From Kitasatospora sp. MAP12-44 (lineage in GTDB: Bacteria > Actinomycetota > Actinomycetes > Streptomycetales > Streptomycetaceae): 64,000 nt of DNA. The translations under genes and the position numbers were made by a program. Location of the stretch: positions 6,572,001 to 6,636,000 of the forward strand of contig NZ_JARZAE010000004.1 of the NCBI RefSeq assembly GCF_029892095.1, read 5' to 3'. Positions 18,001 through 20,781 of this stretch are shown here, piece by piece. Below the pieces are notes generated by a model. It worked only from the letters and a program-made list of their open reading frames with translations, searched no databases and was not told where the DNA came from. Positions within the stretch are counted from its first letter, which is position 1. Each line of letters begins with the position of its first letter.

Positions 18001-20781
18001 CCGGTACCGGAGTTGGCCGCACTGGCCGGCGCCGACCGGGTGGCGCCGCGGAGCGCGACCGAGCGGCGGATCGCCCGGGTCTGGGCCGAGGTGCTGCGCC
18101 TGGACGTGGATCGGATCGGCATCGACGACAGCTTCTTCGAGCTGGGCGGCGACTCGATCCGGGCCGTCCGGATGCTGCCGATCGCCCGCCGGGAGTCCCT
18201 GGAGCTGTCGCTCTGGATGCTCTACCAGTCCAAGACGCTGGCCGAGTTGGCCATGCTGATCAGCGGATCCGCCGAGGAGTCGGTGGAGTTGGCCCTGACG
18301 CCGGCCCAGCGGCGTGCGACCGAGGGGGTGTTGGGCGGCCAGTCCGTCCGGCTCTCGCTCAGCCACCGGCCGGACGCCGAGCTGCTGGAGCGGGCGCTGC
18401 ACGCGCTGGTTGCCCGGCACGAGGCGCTGCGGCTGCGCTGGTCGCCGCAGGCGGGTGCCACGGCGGCGATCGCCGGCACGGAGGACGCCGAGCTGCTGCG
18501 GGTGGTCGAGCTTGGCGAGGTCCCGGCCGAGCACCGCTCGGCGGCGATCGCCCAGGCGGTGGCCGAGGCGGCCACGCTGGTCGACCCGGAGCACGGGCCG
18601 GTGCTGCGCGCCTCGCTCTTCCACTTCGGCTCGGCCAAGATGCTCAACACCGACGTCCTGCCGGAACTGTGGCTCACCGTCCACGACTTGGCCATCGACC
18701 AGGTCTCCTGGCCGGTCCTGGTGAACGAGTTGAACCAGGCCCACCAGCTGCTGGCCGCGGGTGACCAGGCGGCGCAGCCCGCGCCGGTGGCGGCCCCGCT
18801 GTCCGTGCTGGCTGGGGAGTTGGCCGAGCTGGCCGCCGCCGAGGCGCCGGCCGGGCACGCCCAGGCCTGGCTGGACCAGCAGCCGGGCGTTGCTCTGCCG
18901 AGGGACCACGCCGACGGCGTGAACACCCACGGCGAGGCGCGCACGCTCAGCGCCGCGCTGCCGGCCGCCCTCACCGAGGCGCTGCTGGCCGCCGACGACC
19001 CGCAGGCACTGCTGCTCACCGCGCTGGGCCGCACGCTGGCCCGTTGGGCGGGCGGCGAGCGGATCAGCCTGGACGTCACGGCGGACCCGCGCGAGGCGGC
19101 GGACGCGGCCGGCACCGTCGGCCTGCTCGCCGACCGCTTCCCGCTCACCCTGTGGCTGCCGCAGAACCGCCAGGCACCCGCTCAACTGCGAGCGGTGGCC
19201 CGCCAGTTGCAGGCGCTGCCGGAGCCGCGCTTCGGCTACGGCCTGCTGCGCTACGGTGCGGACCAGGACCTCGCGGAGGACCTGGCCTTCCTGCCGCAGC
19301 CGGAGGTGGGGTTCACCTTCACCGAGCCCGCCCCGCAGGCCATCGAGCCGGCCGATTCCACGGAGTCCGCCGAGCTGCCGCTGGTCTTCGTCCCGCAGCT
19401 GATCGAGCCGGTCCGCCCGGCCCAGGCCCAGCGGCCCAGGCTGCTGGACGTGGACGCCCGGGTGCACGACGGCCAGCTCTACGTCCGCTGGACGCACAGC
19501 GCCTCGGTGCACGACGCGCAGACCGTCCGCCGGCTGGCCGACGAGCAACTCGCCGAGCTCGCCGCGCTGCTGGAGAACGCTCCGCGCGCCCCCAAGGCGC
19601 AGCCCGTTGCCTCCATCAAGCCCTCCCGCACCGCCTCGGCCAGCGCTTCGGCCACGCCGCAGAAGCTGGCCGAGGAGATGACCAGGCACGGCATCCCCGG
19701 CGCCAGCCTGGCGCTGATCCGCGACGGCGAGGTGGCAGAGGTCGAGACCTTCGGCACCCTCACCGCGGGCGGGGACCAGCCGGTCACCCCCGGCACGCTC
19801 TTCGCGGCCGGTTCGATCAGCAAGCACCTGACCACGGTCGGCCTGCTGAAGCTGGTCGAGCAGGGCGGCGTCGACCTCGACGAGGACGTCAACCGCTACC
19901 TCACCTCCTGGCGCATCCCCGGCGACCCGGCACCCCGGGTGACCCTGCGCCACCTGCTGTCGCACAGCGCCGGGTTCGCCGTCCAGCCGCCGTTCAAGCG
20001 CTACGAGCCGGGCGAGCCGATCCCCTCGGTGCTGGAGATCCTGCACGGGCAGCCGCCGGCCTCGCCGGTGACCTTCGCCCACGCGCCCGGCGAGGTGTTC
20101 GCGATGACCGCGCTCAACTTCTCGGTCGTCCAGCAGGTGATGTCCGACCTCACCGGCGAGCCGTTCGCGGCCCTGATGCAGCGGCTGGTGCTGGAGCCGC
20201 TGGGCATGGCGGACAGCAGCTACGACCCCGCCTTCGTGCGCGAGGGGGCCCGCCCGTACGCCCGGGGCCACGAGGTCGGCAACGTCCCCGTCCCCGGCGG
20301 CTACCAGGTGATGCCGGAGCTGGCGGCCGGCGCGCTGTGGAGCACGGCCGGCGACATCGCCCGACTGACCGTGGCGGTGCGGCGCTCCTACCTGGGGCTC
20401 CCGGACGCCTTCCTCCCGCAAGCCCTGGCGCAGCAGATGCTCACACCGCAACCCGACCGCCCCTATGGATGGAGCACGATCATCGACAACACCGGAGCAG
20501 ATCTCGAGATCGGCCACGGTGGCCAGGCGACCGGCTTCCAGGCCATGTTCGGCCTGCGGCTGAACGCGGGGCTGGGCGCGGTACTGCTGACCAACGCGAC
20601 CACCGGGCGCGAGCTGGTGACCAAGATCCTCACCAGCCTCTGGCCCACCCAGACCAGGTTCTCGACCCTGTGGCGGCAGGCGACCGACGCCGCGCAGGAG
20701 CGCGAGTCCCGCGCCGCCGAAGCGCAGCAGCAGCAGCAGGTCGTGGCCGGCGCCAACCTCGGGGAGACCCACGGTGAGTGA
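1..20781 (+). CDS. Non-ribosomal peptide synthetase, six A-T units with fused PBP-type release domain (5' partial)
   Basis: The reading frame is open from base 1, so the gene starts upstream. Domain order by approximate nucleotides: end of a standard LCL condensation domain (1-640); A1 720-2240, T1 (Ser in GGDSI near 2377); C1 2580-3860; A2 3905-5340, T2; C2 5700-6960; A3 7035-8560, T3; C3 8900-10150; A4 10220-11650, T4; C4 12010-13290; A5 13360-14800, T5; C5 15160-16420; A6 16490-18000, T6; epimerization-like domain 18290-19590; beta-lactamase-fold domain 19640-20700. Each A domain has a YTSGSTG core and an NGKLD lysine. Specificity residues read by eye are A1/A3 DVWCVAMVHK, A2/A4 DLPKIAEVGK, A5 DLPKIAEIGK, A6 DTWCVAMVYK. 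The A2/A4/A5 set shares seven of ten positions with the Asn code; I cannot name the A1/A3/A6 substrates. C1-C5 carry HAITEG-like motifs instead of HHxxxDG. The last domain has SISK (Ser at 19813) and HGG (20515) and probably releases or cyclizes the peptide. The stop overlaps the exporter start by 8 bp. Confidence 0.95.
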   Translation, partial: AGDSVPFTVPAALADRVRELSLEHGTTPFTFLLTVYQLMLGRYAGSSDIPVGVTVSGRNRPELQQIIGYGINTLAIRGRWTGDPSFAAVLKQSAQTVLEAFDHQAVPFARLVDELQPQRDLSRTPLFQADFVMHEDRESAFDLHGLRLESVLEDRIAKFDLTLNVTHAAEGELRARLGYATALFDRTTAERMAGHFLQLLESVTARPQDRLSAMGLLSPEESVQLLEQWNPVVVEPVERCVHEVFEARAERTPDAVAVVFEGVELSYRELNERANRIAHHLRELGAGPDQLVGVSLERGLDLLPALLGVLKSGAAYLPLDPANPVERLGYILEDAGASLLVTMSGLESVPADYAGTRVLLDADAAVIASRPAVNPVPVASPENLIYVIYTSGSTGRPKGVALSHANVLRLLRSADHDFTFSSEDVWTLFHSYAFDVSVWEMWGALLHGGRLVVASFDTLRSPDEFLDLLVAERVSVLCQTPTAFRSLTALAAAGDARIDELGLRAVVFAGERLETGDLLPWTDRLGLSGPVLVNMYGITETTVHSTYHELGELDLAQPNRSFVGRPLSDLAIHLLDEQGNLVPVGVPGEIYVGGAGVARGYLGRPELTAERFVPDPFGPPGARLYRSGDLARRLEDGSLECLGRIDTQVKIRGYRIELGEITNQLRTHTSVRDAAVIAREDIPGDKTLAAYIVTTEDAALDPIELRTHLSGLLPSYMVPSAFVAIDRIPLTNNGKLDARALPAPDRDAFATAAHVAPTTATELLFAGAWAGILDLDVEQISVHDSFFDLGGDSIRAVRLAGALRELGHVLTIRDIFAHRTIAQLAAHAVPGSAAEAFVPVAPFEQIGAADRAALPADVVDAYPLSQVQTGMLVEMLTSTVEGAYINLNSFRIPDTQAFSPTALEAALRVVVQRHDILRTSMHLDGYSEPLQLVHANAEVPVAVHDLRDLDTAELHQAQQEFVTAQRAEPLDPSVAPLLRVSVHLESDAAWRLTLTQCHAITEGWSLNSLTMELLTAYRAIRDGQEQPVHEAAGVRYADFVAAELVSLESEEDRSYWKGITDGHTPFVLPQAWGSDEGADPLRVTAEYGDLEDGLRALARRAGASLKTVLLAAHLTVLSSLTTESAFHTGLVTHGRLEVPGAERVLGMHLNTLPIAFTAGSATTWVETVRQVFARETEIWGHRRHPLPAIQRASGAERLITVLFDYLDFHQVDDGKIDRAGTIGGAVNEFALNVIAQNGGIHLSATTRSLTADSAERLAAMYRTVLAAMAADADGSPLGAVVPADEQVRLLAVGTAVERPVADLVIDRFEGQAAVTPEAVAVVFGEQRMSYRELDGRANRIARELASLGVDGPVGIYLERSTDMVAGLLAAWKAGAAYLPLDPKLPAERLTHILTDTAAQVVLTTSALASTLPETGARLVLLDTVDGSEATAPKRSIHPLDVAYVIYTSGSTGTPKGVLAHHEGLANYLAFTKATYATAPGGAPLFSPITFDLGIPNIFTPLVTGQPVHLLAHDLDTADLGAALAAGAPYSFIKLTPAHLELLTHQLSAEQASTLAGQVIAAGDTFTTDLAERWRSLAGTETVLATEYGPTEITVGNSGQVATSELSTIPLGEPIPNTAMHVLDAFGALAPVGVPGEVHISGAGVTRGYLGRPDLTAEKFIPNPYGPAGSRLYRTGDLARRLADGSLEFLGRIDTQVKINGYRIELGEITNQLRRLDGVEDAVVIARENSLVAYLVGAEPEAEALREQLAAVLPEYMIPSAFLAIDRIPLTNNGKLDTKALPLPGRDAYASAEHVAPATDTEKLFAAAWADVLGLDLETISTADSFFDLGGDSIRAVRLTGALRESGHSLTIRDIFAHRTIAALAANSTASDAEVLLFRSVEPFTLISPEDRAALPAGTDDAYPLSQIQTGMLVEMLAGAERRSYHNINSFRIPDGEPFSAEALREAIATVVARHDILRTSAHLTDYSQPLQLVHTTVELPLALHDLRALDAEQIEAAGAEFAAQQRADLFDPAVAPLVRATVHLESDEAWRLTFTQSHAITEGWSYHSMLMEILDVYRAVRDGEQQPAYDAPVVRYADYIAAELESLDSAEDRAYWKGVTDAHVPFTVPETWGDQDSPAERYRVPVRFTDIEDGLRALATQAGASLKTVLLAAHLKVLSSLTTETAFHTGLVTHGRLEVPGAEKVLGMHLNTLPIGFTTGSARTWVQLVQNTYARELEAWGTRRYPLPAIQRDTGSQQRLIPVMFDFIDFHHVDTDKVDVRATLIDGATEFELHVSGSAEAVNIIGSTEVVSRSNAERLAGMYRHVLESMAADPMATATAGVFAPAEAARLLAEWNPVVPEPVERCVHEAFEAQAERTPDAVAIVFEGVELSYRELNERANRIAHHLRELGAGPDQLVGVSLERGLDLLPALIGVLKSGAAYLPLDPANPAERLGYILEDAGASLLVTTSVLESVPADYAGTRVLLDTDAAAIASRPSVNPVPVATPDNLIYVIYTSGSTGRPKGVALSHANVLRLLRSADHDFTFSSEDVWTLFHSYAFDVSVWEMWGALLHGGRLVVASFDTLRSPDEFLDLLVAERVSVLCQTPTAFRSLTALAAAGDPRIDELGLRAVVFAGERLETGDLLPWTDRLGLSGPVLVNMYGITETTVHSTYHELGELDLAQPNRSFVGRPLSDLAIHLLDEQGNLVPVGVPGEIYVGGAGVARGYLGRPELTAERFVPDPFGPPGARLYRSGDLARRLEDGSLECLGRIDTQVKIRGYRIELGEITNQLRTHTSVRDAAVIAREDIPGDKTLAAYVVLADDAALDPIELRAHLAAALPDYMVPGAFVAIDRIPLTSNGKLDARALPAPDRKALASTQLVAPRTPVEQDIARAWAEVLRMDAEQVSVHDSFFDLGGDSIRAVRLTGALRELGHVLTIRDIFEHRTIARLALCAVPGSGATAFVPVAPFELIDATDRAALPTGVVDAYPLSQVQTGMLVEMLTSAERGTYININSFLVPDDQAFSPAALEAALRVVVQRHDILRTSMHLEGFSEPVQLVHAEVDVPVAVHDLRGMDEATQRESELAWAGAERARGLDMASAPLLRVTVHLESDAAWRLTLTQSHAITEGWSLNSLTMELLTAYRAIRDGQEQPAFEELTVRYADFIAAELESLDSDEDRAFWQGITDAHAPLTLPEAWGTTAGEAEPVRAEAVFTDLEGDLRALATRAGASLKTVLLAAHLKVLSSLTTESAFHTGLVTHGRLEVPGAERVLGMHLNTLPIPFAHTARSWAELVEQTYAAETEIWGHRRHPLPAIQRASGADRLITVLFDYLDFHQVDTGKVDTAGTIGGAVNEFALNTIAQNGRIQLTGTTRTLTHESAQQLAAMYRTVLVAMAADADGSPLGAVVPAGEQARLLALGTAVDRPVADLVIDRFEGQAAVTPEAVAVVFGEREMTYRELDGRANRIARELLALGVDGPVGIHLERSTDLVAGLLAAWKAGAAYLPLDPKLPAERLTHILTDTAAQVVLTTSALASTLPGTGARLVLLDAVDGSEATAPKRSIHPLDVAYVIYTSGSTGTPKGVLAHHEGLANYLAFTAATYATAPGGAPLFSPITFDLGIPNIFTPLVTGQPVHLLAHDLDTADLGAALAAGAPYSFIKLTPAHLELLTHQLTAEQASGLAGQVIAAGDTFTTDLAERWRRLAGTETVLATEYGPTEITVGNSGQVATSELSTIPLGEPIPNTAMHVLDAFGALAPVGVPGEVHISGAGVTRGYLNRPDLTAEKFIPNPYGPAGSRLYRTGDLARRLADGSLEFLGRIDTQVKINGYRIELGEITNQLRRLDGIEDAVVIARDNTLLAYLVGTTPDTVREDLAAVLPDYMIPSAFLTLDRIPLTNNGKLDTKALPLPGRDAYASAEHVAPTTDTEKLFAAAWADVLSLDPETISTADSFFDLGGDSIRAVRLTGALREKGHNLTIRDIFAHRTIAALAANSTAGDAEMQPFRSVEPFTLISPEDRAAVPAGIDDAYPLSQIQTGMLVEMLADEEKRNYLDVSFYRIPDPKPFSPEALRQAADAVVARHDILRTSTHLTDYSQPLQLVHTTVDIPITTQDLRHLDDASRLAFGLKVLADERAAGFDIATAPLLRIGAYVEADDAWRLSFTHCHAVTEGWSMHSFTMELLDAYRAIRDGEPLPAYDAPAVRYADYIAAELESLDSPEDQAYWKEITDTHTPVALPEAWGDADGPREPHRAMVPYRDLEDGLRTLARRAGASLKTVLLAAHLKVMGALSSEDAFHTGLVVHGRLEAPGAEKVLGMHLNTLPVPFRSSGTPATWAELVRQVFARETEIWGHRRYPLPSVQRAAGVGVGAERLISVIFEYLDFHQVDTDRVDVEAEFHAAPNEFALNVTAINGYVNLATGTDVLSRESAERLVAMYRGVLEAMAADPEGSALDGAVPAAEETALLALGTAPSAAEQPLTLDQFEAQAAATPTAIAVTFGDQELTYAELDERANAIAHQLLALGAGPDIPVGVLLERSTDLIAGLLAAWKAGSPYLPLDPKLPAERLAHILADTAAPLVVTTTGQLGLLAGVFQGRLVLLDEPLDTHPVVTAPARSTQPDNLAYIIYTSGSTGTPKGVMAHHGGLANYLAFTKATYATTPGGAPLFSPITFDLGIPNIFTPLVTGQPVHLLPHDLDTADLAQALSARAPYSFIKLTPAHLELLTHQLSAEQASTLAGQVIAAGDTFTTELAERWRTLAGTETVLATEYGPTEITIGNSGQQATSELSTIPLGEPIPNTAMHVLDAFGALAPVGVPGEVHISGAGVTRGYLNRPDLTAEKFIPNPYGPAGSRLYRTGDLARRLADGSLEFLGRIDTQVKINGYRIELGEITNQLRRLDGIEDAVVIARDNTLLAYLVGTTPDTVREDLAAVLPDYMIPSAFLTLDRIPLTTNGKLDTKALPTPGRDAYASAEHVAPATDTEKLFAAAWADVLGLDLDTISTADSFFDLGGDSIRAVRLTGALREKGHNLTIRDIFAHRTIAALAANSTASDAEMQPFRSVEPFTLISPEDRAAVPVGISDAYPLSQIQTGMLAEMLANPDRNTYHSVNSFRLPDSRELDQHSLRTAVDIVSARHETLRTSIHLAGYSQPLQLVHEVAQIPIAVHDLRGLNPQEMEQAGFAFAIEERDTLFDLATAPLLRIGIHLESEAWRLTFTHCNAITEGWSYHSLLMEILAAYHAVRDGEPLPEYISPVVRYADYIAAELESLDSPEDQSFWKEITDTHTPMAIPESWGDQDSPVERYRVQVDFRDIEERLRALATQAGASLKTVLLSAHLKVMSALTAEESFHAGLVCHGRLEEAGADRVLGMHLNTLPFPHSGTPDTWVELVEQTYAREIEVWSHRRYPLPAIQAAAGNTQRLVSVMLEFHDFHQMDSSLVDAGSERNSVATDFAFHVIASNGAFNIISATDTVTHDYADRLRGMYRHVLECMAADPHGPATSGVLPAAEQARVLLAGSGSLQPEPVELTVHEAFLQRVAAHPDTVAVVAGQDRLTYRELNERANRVAHHLRDLGVGTDSLVGLCLDRGPELLPALLGILKSGAAYVSLDPANPMGRLTQILADTQAPVVLTSSGYAAELAKSYPGELVVVDRAADREAIAARPATDPVNRTSPANLAYVLYTSGSTGTPKGVGLTHANVMRLFRTSEREFTFREADVWAMFHSYAFDTSVWEMWGALLHGGRLVVIAPEIARSPEDFLDVLVAEQITVVCQTPTAFRGLAALAQDDRVGRIALRAVVFAGERLDMSELLPWAQRLGLEQPALVNMYGITETSVYSVRHQLGDRDLSRPTLSVIGTPLGDQKIHLFDRRGNLVPVGVPGEIHVGGPAVARGYRGRPDLTAERFVPDPYGEPGARLYRSGDLARLLPDGTLEFLGRIDTQVKIRGYRIELGEIQARLRQLPGVRDAVAIAREDVPGDKTLAAYVVAEGETVLEPAGLRSALASELPSYMVPAAFVVIDRVPLTPNGKLDHRALPVPELAALAGADRVAPRSATERRIARVWAEVLRLDVDRIGIDDSFFELGGDSIRAVRMLPIARRESLELSLWMLYQSKTLAELAMLISGSAEESVELALTPAQRRATEGVLGGQSVRLSLSHRPDAELLERALHALVARHEALRLRWSPQAGATAAIAGTEDAELLRVVELGEVPAEHRSAAIAQAVAEAATLVDPEHGPVLRASLFHFGSAKMLNTDVLPELWLTVHDLAIDQVSWPVLVNELNQAHQLLAAGDQAAQPAPVAAPLSVLAGELAELAAAEAPAGHAQAWLDQQPGVALPRDHADGVNTHGEARTLSAALPAALTEALLAADDPQALLLTALGRTLARWAGGERISLDVTADPREAADAAGTVGLLADRFPLTLWLPQNRQAPAQLRAVARQLQALPEPRFGYGLLRYGADQDLAEDLAFLPQPEVGFTFTEPAPQAIEPADSTESAELPLVFVPQLIEPVRPAQAQRPRLLDVDARVHDGQLYVRWTHSASVHDAQTVRRLADEQLAELAALLENAPRAPKAQPVASIKPSRTASASASATPQKLAEEMTRHGIPGASLALIRDGEVAEVETFGTLTAGGDQPVTPGTLFAAGSISKHLTTVGLLKLVEQGGVDLDEDVNRYLTSWRIPGDPAPRVTLRHLLSHSAGFAVQPPFKRYEPGEPIPSVLEILHGQPPASPVTFAHAPGEVFAMTALNFSVVQQVMSDLTGEPFAALMQRLVLEPLGMADSSYDPAFVREGARPYARGHEVGNVPVPGGYQVMPELAAGALWSTAGDIARLTVAVRRSYLGLPDAFLPQALAQQMLTPQPDRPYGWSTIIDNTGADLEIGHGGQATGFQAMFGLRLNAGLGAVLLTNATTGRELVTKILTSLWPTQTRFSTLWRQATDAAQERESRAAEAQQQQQVVAGANLGETHGE
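709..12300 (+). repeat. Tandem duplication of an NRPS dimodule (period 6318 bp)
   Basis: Matching landmarks in modules 1-2 and 3-4 are exactly 6318 bp apart: A-domain starts 709/7027, A-core 1174/7492, C-domain motif 2989/9307, second A-core 4321/10639. By the next C motif (6109/12421) the offset is 6312. About 900 bp of A1 (1174-2074) and A3 (7492-8392) are almost identical, including a patch of less G/C-biased codons. A2 (about 4320-5640), A4 (10638-11958) and A5 (13785-15105) are also near-identical. This is direct sequence evidence for duplication, probably maintained by gene conversion (inference). Such repeats also risk mis-assembly. Confidence 0.85.

What the first reader, a model, noticed from the sequence alone, without database searches (positions are those of the whole stretch)
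18290..20781. Final module ends in an inactive-looking E domain and a fused PBP-type release domain
The epimerization-like domain keeps PRFGYGLLRY, but the catalytic motif HHxxxDG reads HDLAIDQ (18682-18702). It is followed in the same chain by a beta-lactamase-fold domain with SISK and HGG, but the usual YxN tyrosine is Ala (ALN at 20110). PBP-type cyclases known from NRPS systems are often separate proteins and prefer a C-terminal D-residue made by an active E domain. A cis-fused version with a degenerate E domain is unusual.
Basis: partly seen in the sequence, partly recalled or inferred. Interest (0 to 1): 0.65.

Follow-up and report, generated by a model that had tools for sequence, protein, structure and literature searches.

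The report
NRPS-fused release domain behind dead epimerase
A giant peptide-making enzyme of a Kitasatospora-like bacterium ends in an epimerase that has lost its catalytic residues and an apparent penicillin-binding-protein-like release domain that has lost its usual catalytic tyrosine; relatives show that this is a conserved variant of a known kind of release domain rather than a one-off defect.

Summary
The E domain motif is HDLAIDQ, and its second catalytic motif (EGHGRE) is gone too. A beta-lactamase-fold (S12) domain with SISK and HGG follows in the same chain. The YxN site is not ALN: by alignment it is M-T-A (20104-20112), so both Tyr and Asn are lost. Comparison with 63 other loci shows: (1) a clade of NRPS-fused S12 domains, separate from SurE-type cyclases and without their extra C-terminal domain; (2) a subclade of 42 distinct sequences, this one included, in which the Tyr was lost once, mostly to Lys (33), here to Met; (3) all five E-bearing loci of that subclade lost the catalytic His and Glu, while six relatives with an intact E domain keep Tyr. 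Most Tyr-less relatives have no E domain. Best reading: a cis-acting release domain with a remodelled active site that takes an L or achiral C-terminal residue; the E domain survives as a folded, non-catalytic piece. Release activity and stereochemistry are inferred, not shown. A cis-fused SurE domain is already published (biffamycin, 2026), so the novelty lies in the Tyr-less, single-domain variant and the conserved dead E domain.

The parts
13..20781 (+). NRPS subunit 3, part inside the window (whole gene 7190 aa, starting 792 bases before the window): six C-A-T modules, then E*-S12
   Evidence: continuous frame across the window edge; overlap of flank and window checked identical
15097..16467 (+). 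condensation domain of the last module; motif reads CNAITEG (second His is Asn) at about 15565-15585
16468..18018 (+). adenylation domain of the last module; code read by eye DTWCVAMVY, residue not assigned
   Evidence: (AMP-binding), sequence printed
18019..18225 (+). carrier (T) domain, SFFELGGDSIRAV at 18130-18168
18286..19563 (+). E*: epimerization-fold domain without its catalytic residues
   Evidence: alignment; top fold match TycB3 E domain, Z 33.6, rmsd 3.1, 416 aligned (tied with PvdL E2, 33.5)
18682..18702 (+). HHxxxDG site, reads HDLAIDQ
19075..19095 (+). EGHGRE site (catalytic Glu in E domains, role recalled), reads VTADPRE
19225..19254 (+). PRFGYGLLRY, retained E-type motif
19564..19659 (+). 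linker, no sign of constraint (dN/dS 1.29 against L010 over 30 codons)
19660..20703 (+). fused S12 beta-lactamase/PBP-fold domain, Tyr-less
19813..19824 (+). SISK, presumed nucleophile Ser and base Lys
20104..20112 (+). YxN site, reads M-T-A (Tyr and Asn lost)
20380..20382 (+). Arg found in 42 of 42 Tyr-less rows and 2 of 20 Tyr rows
20485..20487 (+). Asp found in 42 of 42 Tyr-less rows and 3 of 20 Tyr rows
20512..20523 (+). GHGG (HxG motif)
20774..22075 (+). MFS exporter gene overlapping the NRPS stop; an MFS gene follows the NRPS in L010 and L024 too

Best explanation
The C-terminal S12 domain is the release domain of this assembly line, acting in cis. It belongs to a distinct clade of NRPS-fused S12 domains whose active site lost the YxN tyrosine once, with Lys as the probable first substitute and Met here. 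The peptide on the last carrier domain is passed to Ser of SISK, with the SxxK Lys as base; the acyl-enzyme is then opened by an internal nucleophile or water. The E domain is a folded relic of an ancestor in which an active E domain fed a Tyr-bearing release domain. It no longer epimerizes, so the residue released is L or achiral; it is kept because it holds the carrier and release domains in place. Shown: domain order, loss of both E catalytic motifs, loss of Tyr and Asn, retention of SxxK and HxG, single origin of the Tyr loss on the trees, selective constraint. Inferred: release activity, stereochemistry, mode of opening, role of E*.
For: One continuous frame T-E*-S12 with no fused alpha/beta TE, and no other PF00144 match at E <= 0.001 within 270 kb. 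L010 has the same arrangement; S12 has the lowest dN/dS of the module (0.20; A 0.25, E* 0.37, T 0.46, C 0.49, linker 1.29). SxxK and the His of HxG are kept in 42 of 42 distinct Tyr-less rows. With the YxN columns masked, the Tyr-less rows form one clade (97/90; 97/94 after leaving out long branches) with one change of state. Of these 42 rows, 34 have T directly before S12, 5 have T-E*, and 3 are fragments or rearranged. In 5 of 5 E* domains the second His and the EGHGRE Glu are lost; in 6 of 6 intact E domains fused to the same clade both are kept and the S12 domain keeps Tyr (one of the six, L037, is cut by a contig end). The E* model still has the E fold. One E* locus, L117, has a Gly-like terminal A code, where an E domain has nothing to do. 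Deletion of the cis-fused SurE domain abolishes biffamycin (section read), so an S12 domain can be needed in cis.
Against: No product or activity is known to me for any member of this clade. A stand-alone alpha/beta thioesterase lies upstream on the other strand (L009:7211-7885) and could release instead. This member has lost Lys and Asn as well as Tyr at the YxN site. L033 and L034 have no E domain and a terminal code that is not Gly-like (DLPK..EVG by eye) yet keep Tyr, so loss of E does not force loss of Tyr. The E-dead/Tyr-less match rests on about one event each. The last C domain also lost its catalytic His, so the whole module may be decaying. 34 of 42 relatives do without E*, which weakens a needed spacer role.
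Confidence: 0.6

Rival explanations
1. The S12 domain is a hydrolase: it frees a linear peptide acid rather than a macrocycle (a sub-case of the best explanation).
For: It lacks the lipocalin-like domain of SurE-type cyclases (two-domain description); high-ranking folds are esterases and hydrolases such as IS11 (Z 36.9) and EstB (Z 34.4), with SurE at Z 34.0.
Against: Fold rank says little about the nucleophile; the three values lie within 3 of each other.
Confidence: 0.4
2. The S12 domain is catalytically dead or only structural, and the stand-alone upstream thioesterase or spontaneous chemistry releases the peptide.
For: Tyr and Asn of YxN are gone; a stand-alone TE is encoded at L009:7211-7885; an alpha/beta fold hydrolase is annotated near three plasmid relatives.
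Against: SxxK and HxG are kept in 42 of 42 Tyr-less rows, S12 has the lowest dN/dS of the module, and the Tyr-less clade is found in many genomes. Stand-alone TEs of this kind usually edit (recalled).
Confidence: 0.2
3. E* is an X-domain-like docking platform that recruits a tailoring enzyme to the last carrier domain, as in glycopeptide synthetases.
For: C/E fold with a broken HHxxxDG (the X domain has HRxxxDD; passage in PMC11546977) between the last carrier and the release domain (X position recalled). E* is under constraint between window and L010 and its model has the E fold. A TauD-type dioxygenase and a methyltransferase are encoded upstream.
Against: Motif is HDxxxDQ, not HRxxxDD. 34 of 42 Tyr-less relatives have no E domain. 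No partner was shown, and the flanks were only partly annotated.
Confidence: 0.2
4. The last module is decaying as a whole (C, E and S12 sites all altered) and the chain leaves from an earlier carrier domain.
For: Last C domain reads CNAITEG in the window and in L010; E dead; YxN lost.
Against: A6 is constrained (dN/dS 0.25), frames are open in two species, and L028, L024 and L117 keep the C-domain His. Loss of the second His does not always kill a C domain (PMC11546977, passages).
Confidence: 0.1

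Closest known systems
BifB-SurE of biffamycin A (PMC13285481, 2026): cis-encoded SurE domain at an NRPS C-terminus
   Same: S12-type domain fused after the last carrier domain in place of an alpha/beta TE; needed for production there
   Different: BifB ends PCP-SurE with terminal Gly and no E domain in that module. L038-L040 look like that kind (L039 matches SurE over 32-470 at E 1.5e-72); the window domain has no lipocalin-like domain, no Tyr, and follows a dead E domain
Stand-alone PBP-type thioesterases SurE, Ulm16, PenA, WolJ, FlkO
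   Same: S12 fold, SxxK and HxG; the model aligns to SurE 6ksu with Z 34.0, rmsd 2.8, 315 residues
   Different: those are separate two-domain proteins with a lipocalin-like domain, taking D or, for WolJ, Gly ends; here fused, single-domain, Tyr and Asn lost
NRPS-fused S12 domains with intact E and Tyr (L027, L118, L121, L125, L035, L037)
   Same: same fused clade (100/98), E-S12 order, no extra C-terminal domain
   Different: both E motifs intact and Tyr kept; probably keep D-residue logic (inference)
Epimerization domain of TycB3 (6ta8)
   Same: fold, Z 33.6, 416 aligned; GYG motif
   Different: window E* lost the catalytic His and Glu motifs
X domain of glycopeptide synthetases
   Same: C/E-fold domain without the C or E motif, before the release domain (position recalled)
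   Different: HRxxxDD there, HDxxxDQ here; no P450 partner shown; not among the 50 rows, which does not exclude it

Membership tests
SurE-type PBP-type thioesterase | S12 fold with SxxK | tested here: met
SurE-type PBP-type thioesterase | Tyr and Asn of the YxN motif (the review lists Ser, His, Asn, Lys as tetrad; Tyr role recalled) | tested here: not met
   site reads M-T-A by alignment
SurE-type PBP-type thioesterase | HxG motif with His | tested here: met
   GHGG 20512-20523 aligns with GHDG of SurE
SurE-type PBP-type thioesterase | C-terminal lipocalin-like domain | tested here: not met
   only 25-45 residues follow the S12 fold; among the 22 rows an extra C-terminal domain is seen only in L036, L043 and L038-L041
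SurE-type PBP-type thioesterase | stand-alone protein acting in trans | tested here: not met
   one frame with the NRPS, (biffamycin shows this feature is not absolute)
SurE-type PBP-type thioesterase | D or Gly C-terminal residue, head-to-tail cyclization | not testable with these tools
   product unknown; terminal A code not assigned
Tyr-less NRPS-fused S12 clade (defined here) | NRPS C-terminal position, no extra C-terminal domain, SxxK kept, Tyr lost, one clade | tested here: met
Active epimerization domain | HHxxxDG with second His | tested here: not met
   HDLAIDQ
Active epimerization domain | EGHGRE motif with catalytic Glu (role recalled) | tested here: not met
   VTADPRE
Active epimerization domain | E-domain fold and descent | tested here: met
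X domain of glycopeptide synthetases | HRxxxDD motif | tested here: not met
   HDLAIDQ; motif definition
X domain of glycopeptide synthetases | recruits P450 enzymes | not testable with these tools
   no binding data; flanks only partly annotated
Type I alpha/beta thioesterase | PF00975 domain at the NRPS C-terminus | tested here: not met

The most novel reading that the evidence does not exclude
A branch of NRPS-fused PBP-like domains switched stereochemistry and chemistry together: the catalytic Tyr was replaced, first by Lys and then in some lines by Met, Gln, Leu, Val or Ser, the D-residue requirement was dropped, and the partner E domain became useless, decaying into a non-catalytic spacer in one line and vanishing in most. 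The clade-specific Arg and Asp (20380, 20485) would be part of the new active site.
Probability: 0.3. Interest if true: 0.78.

Novelty: new variant of a known kind. Interest (0 to 1): 0.58.

Why it matters
PBP-type cyclases are wanted as peptide cyclization tools, and their need for a D or Gly C-terminus is a main limit. A conserved natural family that seems to work behind a dead or missing E domain, with a different active site, could give L-selective release domains and offers an evolutionary series (intact E and Tyr; dead E and no Tyr; no E and no Tyr) for testing how stereospecificity changed. Genome mining that recognizes NRPS ends only by alpha/beta TE or SurE could miss or misname these release domains.

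Tried and rejected
Shifted, intact HHxxxDG elsewhere in E*: rejected by alignment with six intact relatives. YxN at ALN: rejected. SurE-family membership: rejected on the lipocalin-like domain and Tyr/Asn; as a contrast L039 matches SurE at 1.5e-72, the window domain at 1.7e-17, behind an esterase and an archaeal PBP homologue. Strict rule 'no active E means no Tyr': rejected by L033, L034, L109 and the SurE-type L038-L040, which lack E and keep Tyr. Own-genome S12 paralogues as a baseline for YxN: of eight loci (one the window itself) the script read three, and one more was read by eye, all four with Tyr; too few to count. Substrate of A6: code DTWCVAMVY read by eye (my script misread positions 299/301); no assignment. 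AlphaFold used shallow alignments (14 and 8 rows; mean pLDDT 71.0 and 69.8; S12 part mostly 70-95 in blocks of ten, lower at its end); no coordinates were available, so active-site geometry was not measured. dN/dS is Nei-Gojobori on one pair of sequences with GC3 near 0.95 (YN00 failed), so ratios are rough.

Rows dropped or not followed: L042 (truncated) from trees and counts; L129 (identical to L026) from the 42-row count; eleven rows (long-branched, truncated or duplicate) from the second tree. L011 (22% identity) was not analysed. Of the 31 places listed, nine weak ones (G038, G048, G088, G120, G128, G149, G167, G172, G217) were not fetched. Of the 454 plasmid records, four were fetched. 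The table was cut. Loci were gathered mainly with a profile of nine Tyr-less rows and one Tyr row (A2), so the ratio of Tyr to Tyr-less is not a census. L029, L112 and L115 are kept in the trees and in the 42 though fusion is not shown. L041 probably is a separate gene.

Literature: searches of the open PMC library listed one work that I found to describe a cis-fused S12 release domain (biffamycin) and none that I found to describe a Tyr-less one; I judged from listings and passages, and most subscription papers are not held.

Full report
What is there. The window lies in a 9.04 Mb genome. The nearest named relative of the locus is Kitasatospora sp. MAP5-34, which is G057 among the 70 genomes searched as the same genus (sequence identity of the loci checked), so the window genome is a Kitasatospora or very near it. 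The frame 13-20781 is the C-terminal part of a 7190-residue NRPS that starts 792 bases before the window. Two more NRPS genes lie upstream. The last subunit has six C-A-T modules by motif and ends T-E*-S12. Pfam finds AMP-binding, PP-binding, Condensation and Beta-lactamase in that order.

The E domain. All cited motifs are at the stated places. Against six relatives whose E domain is intact, HHxxxDG reads HDLAIDQ and EGHGRE reads VTADPRE; GYG is kept. The loss is shared: L010 HDLVVDR, L117 HDLALDD, L028 HQLAADS, L024 HGTAADE; 5 of 5 lost the second His and 5 of 5 the EGHGRE Glu. A tree of 16 rows puts these five with the intact E domains, apart from the six C domains of the same subunit (100/100). 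The model keeps the E fold; top matches are the TycB3 E domain (Z 33.6, rmsd 3.1, 416 aligned) and PvdL E2 (Z 33.5). So E* is an epimerization domain by descent and fold that lost its catalytic residues.

The S12 domain. SISK and GHGG are present. The chain ends 25-45 residues after the S12 fold, with no lipocalin-like domain. The top solved folds are S12 esterases, hydrolases and homologues, with SurE close behind (IS11 Z 36.9, LACTB 36.2, SurE 34.0).

Relatives. Searching 70 genomes of the genus and plasmid records showed S12 domains at NRPS C-termini. At least 10 of the 70 genomes hold a member of the fused clade (G000, G057, G060, G061, G040, G009, G030, G050, G001, G029; the table was cut). 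A profile of ten rows matched 29 of 249 genomes of the family at 1e-40, stand-alone proteins included, 27 of 392 of the genus of G236 at 1e-70, and 5 of 396 of the phylum at 1e-50, where the three genomes outside the family show frames of only 476-552 residues. The genus of G236 is Streptomyces: G317 there has a contig as long as the plasmid of Streptomyces sp. NBC_00335, with an identical S12 domain. The 31 places were all fetched.

Active-site series. Of 64 loci examined, two were set aside (L042 truncated, L129 identical to L026). Of the remaining 62, 42 lack the Tyr: Lys 33, Gln 3, Met 2, Val 2, Leu 1, Ser 1. SxxK and the His of HxG are kept in 42 of 42 (GHGG 39, HAG 2, HTG 1). Of the 42, 5 are T-E*-S12, 34 are T-S12, and 3 (L029, L112, L115) are fragments or rearranged. 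Twenty keep Tyr: 6 with an intact E domain, 3 NRPS-fused without E or extra domain (L033, L034, L109), 3 SurE-type fused (L038-L040), L041 (probably a separate gene), and 7 in short frames of their own. With trait columns masked, the Tyr-less rows form one clade (97/90, 43 rows; 97/94, 41 rows), with one change of state; the fused clade as a whole is separate from the stand-alone rows kept in the second tree (100/98, 49 rows). Lys is the commonest state and occurs in most branches, so it is probably the first substitute; the Met of the window would be a later change. An Arg and an Asp are found in 42 of 42 Tyr-less rows but in only 2 and 3 of 20 Tyr rows.

Constraint. Between the window and L010, dN/dS is 0.20 for the S12 domain, 0.25 for A6, 0.37 for E*, 0.46 for T, 0.49 for C and 1.29 for the linker. 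Neither E* nor S12 behaves like a pseudogene.

Mechanism. The likely course is transfer of the finished chain from the last carrier domain to Ser of SISK, and opening of the acyl-enzyme by an internal nucleophile or water. In class C and SurE-type enzymes Tyr is thought to help activate the nucleophile (recalled). A thioester donor needs less help in the first step; in the second, Lys may replace Tyr in most relatives, and in the window member the SxxK Lys or the clade-specific Arg/Asp would have to do. This is inference. E* cannot be expected to epimerize, and no other E domain was seen by motif in the three NRPS genes, so the terminal residue should be L or achiral, against the D or Gly rule of known PBP-type TEs. 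Codes by eye in this line: NRPS3 modules DVWCVAMVH, DLPKIAEVG, DVWCVAMVH, DLPKIAEVG, DLPKIAEIG, DTWCVAMVY; the second NRPS Gly-like, the first Asn-like (from sequences printed; assignments recalled). The E* relative L117 has a Gly-like terminal code, where losing epimerization costs nothing; L024 and L028, also E*, have Asn-like codes by eye.

What it is not. There is no fused alpha/beta TE. A stand-alone thioesterase is encoded upstream on the other strand (L009:7211-7885) and stays a rival for release. No other PF00144 match lies within 270 kb. E* resembles an X domain in place, but its motif differs.

Against the reading. L033, L034 and L109 lack E and keep Tyr, so E loss and Tyr loss are not strictly coupled. 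The dead-E/no-Tyr match is about one event. The last C domain lost its catalytic His as well. No activity has been measured.

Prior knowledge. PBP-type TEs were described as stand-alone, two-domain and taking D (WolJ also Gly) ends in 2024 (PMC11735501, passages). Biffamycin A (PMC13285481; passages; section 2.6 read) reports a cis-encoded SurE domain needed for production, called unique. L038-L040 look like that type (for L039). The Tyr-less clade with its dead E domain was not found in the searches listed under Tried and rejected.

Verdict. A new variant of a known kind. The anatomy and the evolutionary series are well supported; activity and stereochemistry need the bench.

Noticed in passing
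window 15565-15585 and L010 last C domain: The last-module C domain reads CNAITEG at HHxxxDG (second His is Asn) in both loci, while the other C domains of this subunit keep that His, as do the last C domains of L028, L024 and L117.
   Followed up: partly
L009:14730-18212: The second NRPS gene's C domain reads HHSALLGSQG near the motif site; aligned by eye with its neighbours the second His is Ser and the DG pair is lost.
   Followed up: no
L009:10336-14982: The first NRPS gene begins with an A-like region without a recognizable SGSTG loop, followed by T, then C-A-T.
   Followed up: no
L009:6193-7113, 7211-7885 (-), 8125-9066: A methyltransferase, a stand-alone thioesterase and a TauD-type dioxygenase sit upstream of the NRPS genes.
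   Followed up: partly
window 22095-23384: PLP enzyme next to the exporter scores best with the PatB C-S lyase family but below its cut-off, with weaker matches to cyclodehydratases.
   Followed up: no
L038, L039, L040: Same-genus NRPSs ending in T plus a SurE-type domain with an extra C-terminal domain and a Gly-like terminal code; they look like biffamycin-type systems.
   Followed up: partly
L108, L134-L138: Short Streptomyces frames with A-T-S12 (G[AV]DSM carrier motif), Lys at the Tyr site and a conserved QW nearby; a separate branch of the same clade.
   Followed up: partly
L029, L042: Rearranged or truncated remnants of the same S12 domain without an NRPS in frame.
   Followed up: partly
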